Shown one piece after another: positions 587 to 51,026 of a DNA stretch of 64,000 bases. The notes beneath the pieces were generated by a model. It was not told the origin of the DNA. It was given only the letters and a program-made list of their open reading frames with translations, and made no database searches. Origin of the DNA: Gammaproteobacteria bacterium LSUCC0096. Lineage in GTDB: Bacteria; Pseudomonadota; Gammaproteobacteria; Pseudomonadales; Litorivicinaceae. The stretch's first letter is position 1. Each line of letters begins with the position of its first letter. Position numbers and translations under genes: made by a program. The DNA lies in assembly GCA_008087055.1 (NCBI GenBank), contig VIEA01000001.1, forward strand, positions 610,415 through 674,414, given 5' to 3'.

Positions 587-608
587 GGTGAGTCGTGCCA
601 GTAAGTTA

Positions 609-628
609 GAGGGGGCGAGGGCCCCCTC
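609..628 (-). other. intercistronic hairpin between TRAP receptor and permease
   Basis: GAGGGGGC (609-616) and GCCCCCTC (621-628) form a perfect 8-bp, mostly G-C stem around a 4-nt loop. It lies between the receptor stop and the permease start. No T-run follows on the transcribed strand, so it does not look like an intrinsic terminator. By analogy with other binding-protein operons it may protect the 3' end of the receptor message, giving more receptor than permease (inference). Confidence 0.6.
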
Positions 629-643
629 GGCATAAGCGGTTTT

Positions 644-1612
644 TTACTTCCAACCGCGTTCTTTGTAGTACTTCATCGCACCTGGGTGGATAGGCGCAGA
701 AAGTCCATCACTGATCATTTGCTTTTCATCAAGGTTCGCAAATGCTGGGTGGAGTTTCTTGAAGTCCGCGAAGTTATCAAATACCGCTTTGACAACCGTG
801 TAAACCACGTCGTCAGAAACGTTAGTTGACGTCACAAACGTTGCACCAACACCAAATGTTGTTGTGTCATTCGGGTTGTCTTTGTACATCCCACCTGGGA
901 CTGTTGCTACGCGATAAAATGGATTGTCAGCGACTAGCTTGTCGATTGGAGCACCTTTGACTGATACAAGACGAACATCGCAGCTGTTTGTCGCTTCTGT
1001 GATCGCCGCAGCAGGGTGGCCAATGGTGTAGATCATTGCATCGATCTTGCCATCGCATAGTGCTTGAGCCATTTCAGAACCCTTAAGCTCGGCTGCAACC
1101 GCGAAATCACTCATCTTCATGCCAAACGCATCCATGACAACTTCCATCGTTGCGCGCTGACCTGAACCAGGGTTACCAACGTTGACTTTCAGACCTTTCA
1201 AATCTTCAAACTTTTTAACGTTGTTGAATGACTTACCGCGAACTAGCAATGTGAATGGTTCAGGGTGAACCGAAAACACAGCGCGCAGATCTTTAAATGC
1301 GCCCTGATCCTTGAATTTTGATGTTCCGTTGTACGCGTGGTACTGCCAATCAGACTGCGCAACACCGAACTCGAGCTCGCCGGCGCGAATCGTATTGATG
1401 TTGTAGACAGAACCACCAGTTGATTCGGCTGAGCAACGAATACCGTGCGTTTTACGATCTTTATTAACTAGACGGCAGATTGCACCACCTGTTGGATAGT
1501 AGACACCTGTTACACCACCAGTACCAATTGAGATGAACTGCTGAGCTTGCACTGCACCCGCAGTCAAACCGAACGCTGCAACAGACGCGAGGGCGAAGTG
1601 TTTAATCTTCAT
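644..1612 (-). CDS. TAXI family TRAP transporter solute-binding receptor
   Basis: Periplasmic substrate receptor of a TRAP uptake system, 322 aa. The start is the ATG ending at 1612 because AAGGAG lies just upstream (spacing about 6) and the protein then opens with a clean signal peptide, [23 protein letters not shown]. The longer frame to 1690 would bury that signal behind 26 residues. The mature part begins with the TAXI hallmark [20 protein letters not shown], followed by conserved stretches near [10 protein letters not shown] and [17 protein letters not shown]. The permease gene follows after an intercistronic hairpin. It is transcribed divergently from the RpiR-type regulator, which is the obvious candidate controller. 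The ligand is unknown; family members bind organic acids or amino acids. Confidence 0.93.
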
Positions 1613-33180: not shown

Positions 33181-33738
33181 TGCTTCTGGTGCCTTGGCTT
33201 GCAAATACATGCGGTACAAAGCACTTGCCACGATGAAGGCGACAGCCCAATAGGCTGAGCTTGAGAATGCAGCTGGTGCATACATCAGTTCACGGCTCAC
33301 AAACTCAGCCATGGTTGGCTCAAAATTCCCTGACCACAGATAGAAGCTTCCACTCGAAATCAGTTCACAAACCAAGGTTCCAACCATCGCGAATCCAAAG
33401 AACATCGCAAAACCGGAAAGATTGCCATTCAGGTATGGCTTCACTAACCGGCCCGCCATCCACATGGAGAAGTAAGCTGGGATAAGCATTCCATAGGCAA
33501 CCGACAAACAAGTGCCTGGTACTCCACCAAATGTAAACGCGTAGGCGTCGATACCGACTGCCAGAGACATAAACCAAGCAAAAGACCATGTAGGTAGGAG
33601 AGCCCCGGCTACCATGAAAATCATCCAAGATGCTTCAGGAAGCGCGTTGAACCCCGAGAAATGGGCGCCACGTGTTGCCAGCATCAGAACAGCTAAAGTC
33701 GCTGTGAAAATGTATCGGTTGGTGTCATGGGTTTTCAA
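33169..33738 (-). CDS. btuM: BtuM-like cobalamin transporter (predicted ECF-type S component)
   Basis: Membrane protein of 189 aa with about six hydrophobic helices. It is translationally coupled (TTGA) to the BtuB-like receptor under a cobalamin riboswitch. Size, topology and B12 control match BtuM, a solitary S component that brings B12 across the inner membrane in some proteobacteria. Cys77, in GGVPGTCLSV, sits close to the position of the cobalt-ligating Cys80 described for Thiobacillus BtuM (family knowledge; not aligned here). No ECF ATPase genes are nearby. The start is TTG. The identification rests more on context than on recognised motifs. Confidence 0.6.
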   Translation of the reverse strand: MKTHDTNRYIFTATLAVLMLATRGAHFSGFNALPEASWMIFMVAGALLPTWSFAWFMSLAVGIDAYAFTFGGVPGTCLSVAYGMLIPAYFSMWMAGRLVKPYLNGNLSGFAMFFGFAMVGTLVCELISSGSFYLWSGNFEPTMAEFVSRELMYAPAAFSSSAYWAVAFIVASALYRMYLQAKAPEALPH

Positions 33739-35510
33739 AATTCGTACCTCAGTTCTATCTCGAGTTCTCTGCCAGGGAGAGCATAACTCTTGCTGCCACT
33801 GTGAAGCACTCTATCTTTGTCGAATGCATTTGTTAAATTCGCTTTCACATTTATGTCAGAAAATTTTCGAGAAAAGCTGACGTCAGCGACAACATATCCA
33901 GACAGCACGTAATTTGATTGCTCATCGTAGTTGGTATACATCTTGGATTGACCATGTAGGTCCAAAGAAATCATGCCTCCAAACGATGGGTACTCAGCTC
34001 GATAATTAATCTGCTTCTCGGGCGTGTAGGCCATGGCTGTGTCAGAGTAATTCTCAACTGCTGTCTTTACCAAACTAAAAGTAATATTTTGGTGTAATGC
34101 GCCAAGTAAATATTCCGCAGAAATCTCAATACCAGTTGATGAGGCGTTGCCCTCATTCGCTTGGCTGATCGAAATAAAATCCTGAGTTTTAGTCCGATAA
34201 GCTTTTGTTTTTATCCAGCCAATTTTAATCGGCCAAAGGGACTCAACTGCGATCATCGAAACCTTCTCTGGCTTAAGGTTTTGGTTGTAGTCGCTTACAG
34301 CCCAACTCAGATCGTACTGAGCTTTGTCGGCAAGAGTGGGGTATCTAAAGGATCTCGCAAATGTAACTTTTGACGAAGTGCCAGTTTCGCTCGGTAGTTC
34401 AACATTTAAGTTTGCCGCCGACTGGAGGCCATTGGTTGAATGCTCTTCACCGCGTAGCGAACCCGATATCCTTCCTACTGACATTAACGTGGTGTTTGCT
34501 GAAGCGAATAATCCAGTCAGACTTTGTTCGTCGGCGAGAGCATAGTAGGCGTCACCTCCGGGAGAATAATTAGTTTGGCGGTATTCCCCGCCAAATTGAA
34601 AATTTGTTAGGTAATTTGATACGAGATTGATACCGCTATTATCGGATGTGTATATATTTTTTGACGATGCATCAGAATTATAAGCGGTGGTAGATAGTTC
34701 CGATCTATCGATACTGAAATTCAACGTATCGTTCAACTTTCCAGCAATACGCATTGATGTAATTTCGGTGTCGACGAGATTTTGGTCAAGTCGGCCATTA
34801 TCAATTTCATTTGTCGTAGAACTTTTAGACAGGTCAATCGAAGTTAACCCTACGTTCCGCTCTTGCGAAGTCCACGAAATAGTAGAAGATCCCGTTGTAA
34901 AACCATCGTTATCAGGCTGCGACGCTGGCTGTGAGTCATAACCAGATGACGCTTGGTAGCTGGCTATTAGAGAGATGTTGCTCGTTTGAAGCTCCAGTGC
35001 TTTGGCAACTGTGAATCCCCTAAGATTGTGGGTGCCGCTATTGACGGATACATGATCTTTAACAGAGGTTCCGCCGGTAATTATATTGATGACGGCCCCA
35101 GCAGATCCCGAACCGAAGACCACTCCCTCACCTAAAGAAAAGTATTCGATTCCTTGAACTATCGCTAAATCGATCCACTCTAGCTGGGCTTCTCCTTCTG
35201 TAACGTTGGTAAGAGGCGATCCATTCAGAAGTATGAGAACGTGCTCATCTTCAAGTCCAAACGCCCGTATGTTCGTTTTTGATGTTTTGGTGCCAAGCGA
35301 ATAAACAGTGAAAGAAGTTGTTTTCTGCAAAAGTTCTGCCAATGAATTGGCATTTGTAGCTTCAATCTCTGCTTTTGATATGTACCTAGCAGGTGATGAA
35401 TTACTTAGCAGGTTGGATTTGACGTCGTATTTGATGTCTAGTTCTGTCGCGATTGCAGTCTGCGACAATAACGCTGCCACAGGTATGGCGGCAATATATT
35501 TGAGATTCAT
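33735..35510 (-). CDS. btuB: TonB-dependent outer-membrane cobalamin receptor (BtuB-like)
   Basis: Outer-membrane gated porin for vitamin B12, 591 aa from the ATG ending at 35510 (AGGG at 35517-35520, spacing 6). A signal peptide (MNLKYIAAIPVAALLSQTAIA) is followed by the plug domain, with IRAFGLEDEHVLILLNGSPL and GSAGAVINIITGG. A beta-barrel follows that ends in LEIELRYEF with a terminal Phe. The cobalamin riboswitch directly upstream identifies the ligand better than the protein does. The gene is clearly more AT-rich than its neighbours: sampled 60-bp lines at 34621 and 34681 are 33% and 38% G+C, versus 53% in a sampled purL line. This suggests transfer. Confidence 0.87.
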   Translation of the reverse strand: MNLKYIAAIPVAALLSQTAIATELDIKYDVKSNLLSNSSPARYISKAEIEATNANSLAELLQKTTSFTVYSLGTKTSKTNIRAFGLEDEHVLILLNGSPLTNVTEGEAQLEWIDLAIVQGIEYFSLGEGVVFGSGSAGAVINIITGGTSVKDHVSVNSGTHNLRGFTVAKALELQTSNISLIASYQASSGYDSQPASQPDNDGFTTGSSTISWTSQERNVGLTSIDLSKSSTTNEIDNGRLDQNLVDTEITSMRIAGKLNDTLNFSIDRSELSTTAYNSDASSKNIYTSDNSGINLVSNYLTNFQFGGEYRQTNYSPGGDAYYALADEQSLTGLFASANTTLMSVGRISGSLRGEEHSTNGLQSAANLNVELPSETGTSSKVTFARSFRYPTLADKAQYDLSWAVSDYNQNLKPEKVSMIAVESLWPIKIGWIKTKAYRTKTQDFISISQANEGNASSTGIEISAEYLLGALHQNITFSLVKTAVENYSDTAMAYTPEKQINYRAEYPSFGGMISLDLHGQSKMYTNYDEQSNYVLSGYVVADVSFSRKFSDINVKANLTNAFDKDRVLHSGSKSYALPGRELEIELRYEF

Positions 35511-35555
35511 TTTTGGCCCTAGCCGCGCCCACCGCACGCCTTAAGTTCGTGACAC

Positions 35556-35736
35556 GCTAGGTAGGTCTCCGGGCTTATTCAGGACAATTCCATTTGTCGA
35601 ATCACACACACCTTCCCATCATCAAGACAGTGGCATTCGTGAGGATTCAGGACTGAACATACCGTTGCGGGGGCAGCTTCGGACTTGGCTAGGCCGTACC
35701 GAATTCCCTGTTATGCCGATCGCTCGGCCACCTAAC
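35556..35736 (-). ncRNA. cobalamin (B12) riboswitch
   Basis: Read on the minus strand, the RNA contains the conserved core GCTGCCCCCGCAACGGTA (complement of 35662-35679) and the B12 box AAGCCCGGAGACCTACCTA near its 3' end. The closing P1 helix pairs 35728-35736 with 35556-35565 over nine base pairs, two of them G-T. It precedes the btuB-like gene and would lower its expression when adenosylcobalamin is plentiful. The promoter lies immediately upstream. Confidence 0.95.
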
Positions 35737-35748
35737 GAGAAGGGCGGG

Positions 35749-35776
35749 AGTATAGAGGTCGAGGTTTTAGATGCAA
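35749..35776 (-). promoter_or_regulatory. predicted sigma70 promoter for the riboswitch-btuB-btuM transcript
   Basis: On the minus strand TTGCAT (35771-35776) and TATACT (35749-35754) are 16 bp apart. The predicted start, near 35742, lies only about 6 nt before the first P1 base, so the leader is essentially the riboswitch itself. Confidence 0.6.
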
Positions 35777-46767: not shown

Positions 46768-49740
46768 TTATTCAGTTTCAGTTGTTTCCTGTGGCGCTGA
46801 ATCCGTTCCTTGCGCTGGGGTATCCGCTTTACGTGGGCGACCACGGCCGCGGCCACGCTTAGGTTTGTCGGCGTCTTCCGTCGATGCGGTTGCGCTTGCA
46901 TCGACACTGTCTTCGAGCAGTTGCGCTTTGAGATCGGAAACTGAGGGCGCAGCGCTACTTTCAGTTGTTGCTTCAGTAGCAGCGCGACGGCGACCACGAC
47001 CGCGTCCACGTTTCGGCTTATCCGAATCCTCGTTAACTTCGGTTTCGGCACCCTTATCAGTTGCTGGCTCTTCAGCTACTGGTTGCGACGCTACTTCGGA
47101 GACCACTTCTGTTGGTGTTTCTTCAGCTTTTGCCTTTGGCTTACGGCCTCTGCGAGCTGGTTTTTTCGTAGGCTCTTCTGTCGTCTCGCTTGTTTCTGTC
47201 TCTATTGCTGGCGCGTTTTCTGGCTCAGCTTGAGTGGCTACCGGTTCGGCCTGGGCGTCTGCATTATTCTCTTCTGCAATTCCTGATTTACGAGGACGAC
47301 CGCGACCACGGCTGGCGCGTTTTGGCTTCTCTTCAGATGTTGCTTCTGCAGGCGTTACTTCCGCAGGCATTACTTCTACAACAGTTTCTGCCTCAGGCGC
47401 TTTCGCTTCAGTTGCAGGTTCAGCCACCTCTGTCTGTGCCACTGTTGTTTCAGTTGTATTACCAGACTCCTCGTTTCGACGTGCTCCGCGACGACCGCGA
47501 CGTGCACGCTTGGGTTTTTCTGATTCAGACATGAGTCCTTCGTTCAGTACGGGAGCATCATCGATGGTCGTTTCACCGGAAGTCGTTGCATGCGCTTCAA
47601 GCTGTGCTTCTTGGCTGGCAATGGCGTTTTCCCCACGTTGCTTTCGTTGTGCACGCTTTGGACGCGGGGTCAGATTTTCGTCATGTGCTTTGAGCTCAGC
47701 CTCACGCTCTGGAGAGACTTCTTGGGTTTGAGGTGTTTGAACCTCGTTCTCCATGACCTCTGGGTTCTCAGAGCGGTTTTTATTGCGTCGACGTCGACGT
47801 CGACGACCACCTTGTGATCCGTCTGCTGTGCGCTCTGTTTCTTGTGTCTGAGGTCCACGGTTATTTTGTGGACGATTGGTTTGATCGCCGTCTGTGCGAT
47901 CTCGGCGATCGTTGTTTTTGTTATTGCGACGTCGATTGTTTTGGCTTGAGCGGCGATTCGCTTGCTCATCCTCAGCATCACCAAACAAGAAACCGAAGAC
48001 ACGTGACAGCAACGACTTTTGCTGAGGCTTACCTTGGCGGCGACGCGCGCTCTCGGGACGCTTTTTGCGCCCGATGCTTTCATCTCGATCGCTTTCTTCG
48101 ACTTTAACGGGTTCAGGAGCGCGCTCTGGCGCTGGTGTTTTTGGTTTGATATCGGTAACGAGTGCTTGTTCGCGCTCTTCGGCTTGTTTTGCACGGACAA
48201 GCTCGGGTTCAGGCGCAGGAGTCGATGATTGAATATCAATCGAAAGCTCGAGGTTTGCCACTTGTGGATCATCGTCACGAAGGCGCTGAAGGTCGTAATT
48301 CGGTGTTTCCATGTTTGGATTTGGAATCACCAATACACGTACTTTATGACGGCGTTGGATGGATTCGAGCTGTTGGCGCTTTTCGTTTAAGAGGAATGTA
48401 CCGACTGGAACAGGGACCTGAACGCGGACTTCACCCGTCCGTTCTTTGACTGTCTCATCTTCCAATAAACGCAGAATCTGCAGTGCAAGCGATTGCACGT
48501 CACGGATACTGCCTTGACCATGGCAGCGTGGGCATACCACACCGCTTGTTTCACCGAGTGATGGGCGAAGACGCTGGCGACTCATTTCAAGAAGGCCAAA
48601 TCGTGAAATACGGCCGATTTGAACTCTCGCGCGATCAGATTTCAGAGCATCTTTTAGTCGGTTTTCTACAGCCTTTTGATTTTTGTTAGCAGACATGTCG
48701 ATGAAATCGATAACGACTAAACCACCCATGTCACGAAGACGCAGTTGACGAGCAATCTCGTCTGCGGCCTCTAAATTCGTATGCAGTGCTGTTTCTTCGA
48801 TGTCTCCGCCTTTCGTTGCACGCGCAGAGTTGATATCAATTGAAACCAATGCCTCTGTTGGATCGATAACGATCGCACCACCTGATGGAAGCCGAACTTC
48901 ACGTTGGAACGCCGATTCGATTTGGCCTTCGATCTGGAATCGATTGAAGAGGGGTGTTTCATCTTGGTACAGCTTGACCTTACTACCGTATGACGGCATG
49001 ACCTGTTGAATGAGGTCTTTTGCTTTTTCGAAGACTTGTTCGTTATCGACAAGAACTTCGCCGATGTCTTGGCGGAGATAATCACGAATCGCGCGAACAA
49101 TGACATTCGATTCTTGATAGATCAAAAAAGGTGCTACTCCGGAAAGCGCTGCCTTGCGGATCGCTTGCCATGCAGTATCTAAGTAATCGAGGTCCCACTG
49201 GAGCTCTTCAACAGACCGCCCAACACCTGCGGTACGGATGATAATGCCTGCGCCTTGGGCAATTGTCAGGTTGGCAAGTTTATCGCGCAGTTCAGCACGA
49301 TCTTCCCCTTCAATTCGGCGCGAAATACCACCGGCATCTGGGTTGTTTGGCATGAGAACCAAATAACGGCCAGCTAGTGAGATATAAGTCGTGAGAGCGG
49401 CGCCTTTGGTTCCACGCTCTTCTTTCTCGACTTGGACGATCAGCTCTTGGCCTTCTTTTAAGACCTTGTCGATTTTCACACGCTCACCTTCAGTAGGCGT
49501 GTTGTAGAAGTATTCGGGAGAAATTTCTTTCAGTGGTAAGAAACCGTGACGCTCACTACCGAAATCGATAAAAGCAGCTTCAAGACTTGGTTCGATCCGC
49601 GAAATTTTCGCGCGATAGATATTGCCTTTTTTCTGTTCACGGTCTGATGACTCGATATCGAGGTCGTAGAGTTTTTGACCGTCGACCATTGCAACGCGAA
49701 TTTCTTCCGCCTGCAGTGCATTAATTAATATACGCTTCAT
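46768..49740 (-). CDS. rne: ribonuclease E
   Basis: Essential endoribonuclease for mRNA decay and rRNA/tRNA processing; 990 aa from the ATG ending at 49740. From there [22 protein letters not shown] follows the E. coli N-terminus. The catalytic half has the S1 domain (residues about 37-120), the metal-binding Asp residues in VSIDINSAR and VVIDFIDM, and the Zn-link CPRCHGQG. The C-terminal half (after about residue 500) is low-complexity and unstructured. It contains Arg-rich segments, a Trp-free scaffold-like region and six basic repeats of the KPKR...RGR type. A long structured leader precedes the gene. Confidence 0.97.
46828..47670 (-). repeat. rne: basic AT-hook-like repeats in the RNase E tail
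   Basis: Six Lys/Arg/Gly-rich segments are spaced through the last 300 codons of rne: [67 protein letters not shown] and [11 protein letters not shown]. Acidic Ala/Glu/Thr-rich spacers of roughly 35-60 residues separate them. They resemble AT-hook or RNA-binding basic motifs. Confidence 0.8.
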
Positions 49741-50024
49741 TGTAAGTGGCAACCTTCATGGTTTGATCGCCACGATCTCAGAGGGCTAGCTATACTAACC
49801 ATGGCCCAACCGTAAAATCGGTCGGGCGACAAGACACATTGTAAAGGGCTCGACCGGTATACCGGGAGCCCGGAATTTCTTTGTTACTGCAGGCTATCCT
49901 GCCGACACATTGATATGTGTTTGTCCCAGCTTTGCTGGCCCGCCAAGATCGGGCGGGATTATTTCAACTCCGGAAAACCGGAGGTCTCATTCGGCTTTAG
50001 GGAGTCTTGACTCAACCTAAAGTA
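49741..50024 (-). ncRNA. structured 5' leader of rne (eight predicted hairpins)
   Basis: This 338-bp gap before divergent rluC has no gene. The predicted rne leader holds, from its 5' end: a long stem (49995-50022); CTCCGG/CCGGAG with an AAAA loop (49968-49983); CCCGCC/GGCGGG (49939-49957); CCAGC/GCTGG (49926-49938); ACACAT/ATGTGT (49905-49920); GCAGG/CCTGC (49889-49902); a two-part stem (49846-49871); and GCCC-ACCG/CGGT-GGGC (49804-49827). In E. coli the rne leader binds RNase E and mediates autoregulation. The same role is inferred here. Confidence 0.72.
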
Positions 50025-50030
50025 GTCTGG

Positions 50031-50059
50031 AGCATAACAGCGCATGTCGCTTGCGGCAA
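50031..50059 (-). promoter_or_regulatory. predicted rne promoter
   Basis: On the minus strand TTGCCG (50054-50059) and TATGCT (50031-50036) are 17 bp apart. The predicted start, near 50024, falls just before the first leader hairpin, giving a 5' untranslated region of about 284 nt. Confidence 0.55.
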
Positions 50060-50078
50060 TGCATCATGGAGAAAGTGA

Positions 50079-51026
50079 GTGGAAAAGAAAGTCCAATGGG
50101 TGACTGTAGACGCCGCCAAGGAAGGGCAACGGCTTGATAATTTTTTATCAAGTCAGCTGAAAGGGCTTCCAAAGGGGCGTATTTATAAAATGATCCGGAC
50201 CGGTGAAGTTCGGATCAACAAAGGACGTTGTAAACCTGACTCACGTGTATCCGCTGGTGATGTCGTTCGAATCCCACCGGTTGATTTGGAGCCGCCCAAA
50301 GAGCAGGTTGCTCATCGCGGGATTCAGATGAAGTTGTCTGATGCGCTGATTTACGAAGATGAAGATATCTTGGTGTTGAATAAACCTTCGGGTTTAGCGG
50401 TTCATGGTGGTTCTGGTTTATCAACTGGGTTAATTGAGCAGTTGCGTCTGGCGCGACCCGAAGAGAAATTCTTAGAGTTGGTTCATCGGCTTGACCGGGA
50501 AACCAGTGGTTGTTTATTGGTTGCACGCAGGCCATCGGCGTTGCGCCGTTTGCACAAACAATTGCGCGATCAAGATAAATCCTTGCAAAAACGATATGTG
50601 GCTTTAGTTGCTGGAAAATGGCCTCAATATCTTGTTGATGTCGAAGCGCCGCTTGAGAAGTTTGAGCGAGGGGGAGAGCGAATTGTTCAGGTCACTGAGA
50701 ATGGCAAGCCTTCTCATACCCGCATCCGCATTCTTGAGCATTTAGACGGTTGTACTTTAATTGAGGCCGAACCTGTCACTGGGCGGACGCATCAGATACG
50801 TGTTCATGCCGCCTATTACAAACATGCGGTATTAGGTGATCCTAAATATCAGCATGATGATTCGCGTGATCAATGGCGAGCTCGAGGCATTAATGGACTG
50901 TGTTTGCACAGTCGTTCGATTGGCTTTAAGGGAGCGACGGGGCATCAGGTGACTGTTGTTGCGCCAATCCCTAACCCGATGCAGCGATTTTTAGTGGAAG
51001 CTGGATATGACCCAGACATTTATTAG
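50079..51026 (+). CDS. rluC: 23S rRNA pseudouridine(955/2504/2580) synthase RluC
   Basis: Converts three uridines of 23S rRNA to pseudouridine; 315 aa. An N-terminal S4 RNA-binding domain (GQRLDNFLSSQLKGLPKGRIYKMIRTGEVRINKGR) is followed by the RluA-family catalytic motif VHRLDRETSGCLLVA, with the nucleophilic Asp, and by EAEPVTGRTHQIRVH. The start is GTG at 50079, with GGAG 7 nt upstream. It diverges from rne, the conserved gammaproteobacterial arrangement. Confidence 0.96.
   Translation: MEKKVQWVTVDAAKEGQRLDNFLSSQLKGLPKGRIYKMIRTGEVRINKGRCKPDSRVSAGDVVRIPPVDLEPPKEQVAHRGIQMKLSDALIYEDEDILVLNKPSGLAVHGGSGLSTGLIEQLRLARPEEKFLELVHRLDRETSGCLLVARRPSALRRLHKQLRDQDKSLQKRYVALVAGKWPQYLVDVEAPLEKFERGGERIVQVTENGKPSHTRIRILEHLDGCTLIEAEPVTGRTHQIRVHAAYYKHAVLGDPKYQHDDSRDQWRARGINGLCLHSRSIGFKGATGHQVTVVAPIPNPMQRFLVEAGYDPDIY

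What the first reader, a model, noticed from the sequence alone, without database searches (positions are those of the whole stretch)
49741..50059. RNase E leader built of eight stable hairpins with its own promoter
A promoter (TTGCCG-17-TATGCT) would start rne at about 50024, directly at a 12-bp hairpin that would leave almost no free 5' end. Seven more hairpins follow within 200 nt. E. coli rne is autoregulated through a leader of similar length. The sequences here share only the principle, so this may be an independently evolved or unrecognised leader class.
Basis: partly seen in the sequence, partly recalled or inferred. Interest (0 to 1): 0.6.

Follow-up and report, generated by a model that had tools for sequence, protein, structure and literature searches.

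The report
New structured leader of RNase E mRNA
The gene for the main RNA-cutting enzyme of a marine bacterium starts with a tightly folded, evolutionarily preserved RNA leader that matches no catalogued family and most likely lets the enzyme sense and limit its own production, as leaders of different sequence do in E. coli and probably Pseudomonas.

Summary
The 285-nt leader of rne (minus strand, about 50024-49741) folds into nine hairpins and one long-range helix. It is the most structured stretch of its length in the window on either strand (z about -6 to -7). All 15 genomes of the genus in which rne was found carry it, directly before rne; no other genus of 118 sampled in the order does. 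Pairing is kept by compensatory changes beyond a tree-aware null (0 of 300), mainly in hairpins 1 and 8. G-U outnumbers A-C 106 to 14, so the rne-sense RNA is selected. The promoter (TTGCCG-17-TATGCT) is kept in all 15. H1's cap and H3-H4-P5 are 90-99% identical although rne third codon positions are at 48%. Rfam rne5 and rne-II do not match. It is a real, unrecognised rne leader class. Autoregulation is inferred by analogy with E. coli and Pseudomonas, not shown. Extra anatomy: the Shine-Dalgarno sequence sits in the last hairpin, and the invariant H3 loop is complementary to the stretch before that hairpin, so a pseudoknot or strand exchange exposing the ribosome site is possible. Whether it arose independently of other rne leaders cannot be decided.

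The parts
50054..50059 (-). -35 element TTGCCG of the rne promoter
   Evidence: TTGCCG in 13 and TTGTCG in 2 of 15 relatives, spacer always 17
50031..50036 (-). -10 element TATGCT (extended, TG upstream)
   Evidence: TATGCT/TATCCT/TATTCT in 15 of 15; predicted start about 50024, not mapped
49995..50022 (-). Hairpin H1 at the 5' end; lower stem covaries, cap GGTTGAGTCAAGACTCC nearly invariant
   Evidence: 14 double-change cells, none of 300 tree-aware null replicates reaches it; cap 98% identical
49968..49983 (-). Hairpin H2
   Evidence: 96.7% of cells paired, null 85.5%, 6 of 300
49939..49957 (-). Hairpin H3 CCCGCC-CGATCTT-GGCGGG, stem and loop nearly invariant
   Evidence: 97% identity; loop 49951-49945 complementary to 49779-49773
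49926..49938 (-). Hairpin H4, directly abutting H3 and P5
   Evidence: 90% identity, 98.7% of cells paired
49915..49925 (-). 5' strand of long-range helix P5 (GACAA paired with TTGTC in 15 of 15)
   Evidence: (100% of cells for the first five pairs)
49889..49902 (-). Hairpin H6 inside P5
   Evidence: 95% of cells paired, null 83%, 3 of 300
49874..49888 (-). Single-stranded A-rich linker with an RNWUU candidate RNase E site (AAATT, 49878-49874)
   Evidence: RNWUU present at this place in 15 of 15; unpaired probability 0.96-0.99 at four of its five bases, 0.46 at the first
49846..49871 (-). Hairpin H7 inside P5
   Evidence: 94% of cells paired, null 83%, 10 of 300
49828..49839 (-). 3' strand of P5
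49804..49827 (-). Hairpin H8, sequence varies, pairing kept
   Evidence: 6 of 8 pairs with changes on both sides, 0 of 300 null
49784..49800 (-). Hairpin H9
   Evidence: 97% of cells paired, null 86.5%, 3 of 300
49773..49779 (-). GAGATCG before the last hairpin, complementary to the H3 loop
   Evidence: 7 pairs in 13 of 15, pairing kept at 98.8% of cells for the extended helix; chance about 0.015 for the loop against unpaired segments
49746..49773 (-). Hairpin H10, which holds the Shine-Dalgarno sequence
   Evidence: 98.5% of cells paired
49753..49756 (-). Shine-Dalgarno core AAGG; its GG pairs in H10
   Evidence: AAGG in 15 of 15, GG mostly paired
46768..49740 (-). rne, RNase E, 990 aa
   Evidence: NCBIfam RNaseEG over cut-off, ribonuclease E best hit
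50079..51026 (+). rluC, divergent neighbour
   Evidence: RluA family over cut-off, RluC best hit

Best explanation
It is the 5' untranslated leader of the rne mRNA, transcribed from its own promoter, and it acts in cis to hold RNase E at a set level. Steps shown by sequence: a promoter, a 5'-terminal hairpin, a compact core (H3, H4, helix P5 enclosing H6 and H7, then H8, with H3, H4, P5 and H8 abutting without linkers), and a last hairpin that contains the ribosome-binding site. Steps inferred: H1 blocks 5'-end-dependent attack, so RNase E must enter internally. It binds the invariant stem-loop core and cuts an exposed A/U-rich linker, most likely AAAGAAAUU between H6 and H7. The fragment, with a 5' monophosphate and poor translation because of H10, is then degraded. 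More RNase E therefore gives less rne mRNA.
For: Most structured segment of the window, z -6.0 to -6.9. Present in all 15 genomes of the genus in which rne was found and always directly before rne. Compensatory changes 33 cells against 7.3 +/- 3.0 under a tree-aware null, 0 of 300; pairing 96.3% against 85.0%. Strand bias G-U 106 against A-C 14. Conservation of H1 cap, H3, H4 and P5 at 90-99% against 48% at rne third codon positions. Conserved promoter. RNWUU linker site in 15 of 15. Analogy: E. coli RNase E binds a stem-loop of its own leader and destabilises the mRNA (review PMC3997798); P. aeruginosa rne leader and coding RNA rise in RNase E C-terminal mutants (PMC11964227) and a leader fragment is attributed to cleavage at rne-II (PMC8545117); RNase E has a groove for stem-loops, and tandem structures favour internal cleavage (PMC9841416).
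Against: No expression, cleavage or binding data for this genus. RNWUU is a short motif that occurs elsewhere in the leader. H3, H4 and P5 hardly vary, so they are supported by conservation and stability, not covariation. Strong hairpins could also serve only mRNA stability.
Confidence: 0.65

Rival explanations
1. The leader is a passive stabiliser and translation damper: a 5'-terminal hairpin and stable stems set a fixed mRNA lifetime and the SD hairpin sets a fixed low initiation rate, without sensing RNase E.
For: H1 lies at the predicted 5' end in all relatives; SD GG is paired in H10; across 59 other rne upstream regions of the order the last 60 nt before rne are also more structured than shuffles (mean z -1.4, 41% below -2).
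Against: A passive stabiliser needs no invariant loop and stem sequences; H1 cap, H3, H4 and P5 are 90-99% identical at saturation divergence. Known rne leaders are regulatory.
Confidence: 0.17
2. The leader senses something other than RNase E (a small molecule, a protein partner or an sRNA) and switches translation through H3-H10 strand exchange.
For: Riboswitch-like mix of an invariant core and covarying stems; H3 5' half plus loop is complementary to the stretch before and within H10 in all 15 (11 pairs in 13 of 15), energies of the two states differ by only -5.6 to +6.6 kcal/mol; the chance of the 13-nt complementarity is 0.005 by permutation.
Against: No ligand candidate; found only at rne; for the window's own sequence the exchange state is 5.2 kcal/mol worse; no two-sided covariation for the pairing; found post hoc.
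Confidence: 0.1
3. The conserved structure belongs to the other strand, as the leader or an attenuator of rluC, or is a DNA-level element.
For: The 338 bp between rne and rluC are shared; the + strand holds a terminator-like site at 49939-49957 and a promoter-like site at 49767-49796.
Against: Wobble pairs show the rne-sense strand is selected (106 G-U against 14 A-C); the rne-strand fold is more stable in 14 of 15.
Confidence: 0.03

Closest known systems
rne-II, Rfam RF01756 (rne leader of Pseudomonas and kin)
   Same: Same position directly before rne, similar length (matches of 266-283 nt), many hairpins, structured RNA before the start codon, probably the same order
   Different: Model does not match any f1 genome; found only in family f20, always just before rne. 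No shared sequence; R1 does not score rne-II loci above 7.5 bits
rne5, Rfam RF00040 (E. coli rne leader, site of RNase E autoregulation)
   Same: Long, hairpin-rich 5' UTR of rne; long leaders are the setting of feedback in E. coli
   Different: No match here or in any genome of the order above cut-off; control rings in E. coli
rne 5' UTR of Synechocystis (U-rich cleavage site)
   Same: RNase E cuts its own 5' UTR in an exposed A/U-rich site (PMC10989929)
   Different: Cyanobacterial; involves a U-tract and premature termination; no terminator-like site seen on the rne strand here
rne leader of the sister genus in the same family (L017, L018)
   Same: Hairpin-rich leader before rne with the SD (TAAGGA) in the loop of a last hairpin whose stem differs between the two genomes but still pairs
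   Different: Sequence not found by DNA search; R1 gives 6.2 bits at the right place and strand in L018 only

Membership tests
rne5 (RF00040) | Covariance model match | tested here: not met
   No match at E up to 5 in 49500-50300, none in the genus genomes, none in 11 loci
rne5 (RF00040) | Lies in the 5' UTR of rne | tested here: met
rne5 (RF00040) | Stem-loop that RNase E binds, causing feedback | not testable with these tools
   Needs reporter and binding assays
rne-II (RF01756) | Covariance model match | tested here: not met
   No match in f1 genomes searched; only in f20; none at E up to 5 in the window region
rne-II (RF01756) | Directly upstream of rne | tested here: met
rne-II (RF01756) | Cleaved by RNase E | not testable with these tools
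   Attributed for P. aeruginosa in PMC8545117; no data here
Autoregulatory rne leader (functional kind) | Long structured 5' UTR from its own promoter, kept by selection | tested here: met
   promoter by conservation only
Autoregulatory rne leader (functional kind) | Expression falls as RNase E rises, in dependence on the leader | not testable with these tools
   No expression data

The most novel reading that the evidence does not exclude
A bistable rne leader: the invariant hairpin H3 can swap partners with the Shine-Dalgarno hairpin H10. In the intact leader H3 pairs with the 5' strand of H10 and frees the ribosome site; when RNase E cuts the linker between them, H3 is lost, H10 closes and translation stops. 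Cleavage itself would be the off-switch.
Probability: 0.15. Interest if true: 0.7.

Novelty: new variant of a known kind. Interest (0 to 1): 0.48.

Why it matters
RNase E sets mRNA turnover in most Gram-negative bacteria, and its level is controlled through its own leader where this has been studied. Two leader classes for rne are in Rfam. A third, with no detectable sequence relation, confined to one genus yet under strong RNA-level selection, indicates that the control is kept while the RNA that performs it turns over fast. It gives a concrete set of elements (5' cap hairpin, invariant core, linker cleavage site, SD hairpin, H3-H10 pairing) to test.

Tried and rejected
DNA match in another family (G054, L016): 28 nt that lie in coding sequence on a contig other than its rne contig, rejected as chance. 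Weak R1 hits at G000:C1:592229 and G025:C4:5188: both within open reading frames, rejected. Copies of the H3-H4 block elsewhere in genus genomes, for trans control of other genes: only inexact hits in a few genomes, not followed further. A local hairpin ACACAT/ATGTGT competing with P5: the long-range form is favoured in most sequences and the local one is absent in L015. Kissing of the H1 loop CAAG with the H3 loop: considered by eye, no compensating changes, dropped. Leader peptide in GTGGCGATCAAACCATGA: stop not kept in relatives (alignment). Intrinsic terminator on the rne strand: none found. The primary E. coli papers are not held, so E. coli facts are cited from reviews.

Full report
What is there. 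On the minus strand, 338 bp separate the start codons of rne (ATG 49740) and the divergent rluC (GTG 50079 on +). Gene identities were checked with NCBIfam: RNaseEG and RluA-family models over their cut-offs, with ribonuclease E and RluC as best-named hits. A promoter TTGCCG-17-TATGCT (50059-50031) would start transcription near 50024. The leader from there to the start codon folds at -118.9 kcal/mol into H1 (50022-49995), H2 (49983-49968), H3 (49957-49939), H4 (49938-49926), a long-range helix P5 (49925-49915 with 49839-49828) that encloses H6 (49902-49889) and H7 (49871-49846), then H8 (49827-49804), H9 (49800-49784) and H10 (49773-49746).

More than chance. Against dinucleotide shuffles z is -5.97 with none of 100 as good. 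Of 640 stretches of 287 nt over the window on both strands it ranks first by energy and by z.

Relatives. The DNA is found in 15 genomes of the same genus, the window's own included, at 71-97% identity to the others, and these are exactly the 15 in which an rne was found. A covariance model of the 3' two thirds (R1, 217 positions) finds the same 15 with 161-262 bits, and nothing else in 293 genomes of 118 genera of the order. It finds nothing convincing upstream of rne in some 60 other genomes, whose regions were fetched by rne position. That identification is inference.

Selection on structure. RNAalifold gives 80 pairs, 16 with double changes. For 61 pairs of the 3' part, 96.6% of cells pair; 17 cells changed on both sides against 4.1 in shuffles, and sliding the partners never reaches more than 6. 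Because the sequences are related, I simulated 300 alignments on the inferred tree with each column's own number of substitutions: 33 double-change cells against 7.3 +/- 3.0, and 96.3% paired against 85.0 +/- 1.9, none of 300 reaching either. The signal is strongest in H1 and H8; H2, H6, H7 and H9 keep pairing more than expected; H3, H4, P5 and H10 hardly vary and are supported by conservation only. G-U cells number 106 and A-C cells 14, so the rne-sense RNA is what is selected.

Two kinds of constraint. rne third codon positions are 48% identical among the 15, H1 lower stem 67% and H8 64%, yet the H1 cap is 98%, H3 97%, H4 90% and the first P5 strand 99% identical. H3, H4, P5 and H8 abut with no linker, which suggests a stacked core (inference). 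The promoter hexamers and their 17-nt spacing are kept in 15 of 15, and the distance to H1 in 14 of 15.

Start codon region. AAGG lies 12 nt before the ATG here (10-12 in relatives), and its two G are paired in nearly all predicted ensembles. In the sister genus the SD TAAGGA lies in the loop of a last hairpin whose stem sequence differs between the two genomes but still pairs. Across 59 other leaders of the order, the last 60 nt are more stable than shuffles (mean z -1.4).

H3-H10 link. Pair probabilities of H3 and H10 fall together in several relatives. The H3 loop CGAUCUU is complementary to GAGAUCG just before H10 (7 pairs in 13 of 15), and with CGCC/GGCG this makes an 11-pair helix of about -17 kcal/mol. 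98.8% of cells pair. At pair 105-284 all five departures keep pairing (U-G to U-A or C-G), and the A-U to G-U change at 101-288 does so in two more sequences; one change in L008 breaks a pair and no pair counts as changed on both sides. Permuted loops do as well against the unpaired segments in about 1.5% of cases; the 13-nt version in 0.5%. Against the whole rest of the leader the loop alone is not special (10%). It is either a pseudoknot compatible with both hairpins or a strand exchange. The energy difference between the states ranges from -5.6 to +6.6 kcal/mol, +5.2 in the window's own sequence. I treat this as suggestive and post hoc.

Comparison with known leaders. Rfam finds nothing at E 5 in the region except unrelated weak matches, and nothing at E 0.1 in eleven loci. 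RF01756 rings in only four genomes of family f20, each just before rne. RF00040 rings over its cut-off in no genome of the order, while its control rings in E. coli. So it is a member of neither family, though it may work like both. Literature basis for the mechanism: E. coli feedback through a leader stem-loop and a primary cut in the leader (PMC3997798); P. aeruginosa RNase E C-terminal mutants with raised rne leader, coding RNA and protein (PMC11964227), and a leader fragment attributed to cleavage at rne-II (PMC8545117); Synechocystis self-cleavage of the leader (PMC10989929); preference for tandem stem-loops in internal cleavage (PMC9841416); the rne-II motif (PMC2864571).

Verdict. Real, strongly selected, unrecognised rne leader class (confidence 0.97 for the RNA structure; not an artefact). 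Feedback by RNase E is the most likely function (0.65) and untested here. Independent origin is undecided.

Noticed in passing
window 35543-35750 (-): Cobalamin riboswitch (RF00174, 91 bits) directly before a 600-aa outer-membrane receptor-like ORF at 33735-35537, BtuB-like by arrangement.
   Followed up: partly
window 49939-49957 (+): On the rluC strand, H3 reads as a GC-rich hairpin followed by a T-rich stretch, terminator-like, 122 bp before rluC; the T-rich side is kept loosely in relatives.
   Followed up: no
window 601-887 (-): Second strongest structure z (-6.7) in the window, across the end of an ORF that looks like a TAXI-type solute-binding protein and a terminator-like hairpin before the next gene.
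   Followed up: partly
L037, L038, L047, L048, L025-L027, L023 (before rne): Several other families share a last hairpin of the form GGTGCC...GGTACTAC-ATG (or near it) just before rne, which could be an ancestral SD-proximal element of rne leaders in this order.
   Followed up: no
59 rne upstream regions of the order (L017-L076): rne leaders are structured in general (300 nt mean z -2.1, 44% below -2) but show no obvious shared sequence between most families.
   Followed up: partly
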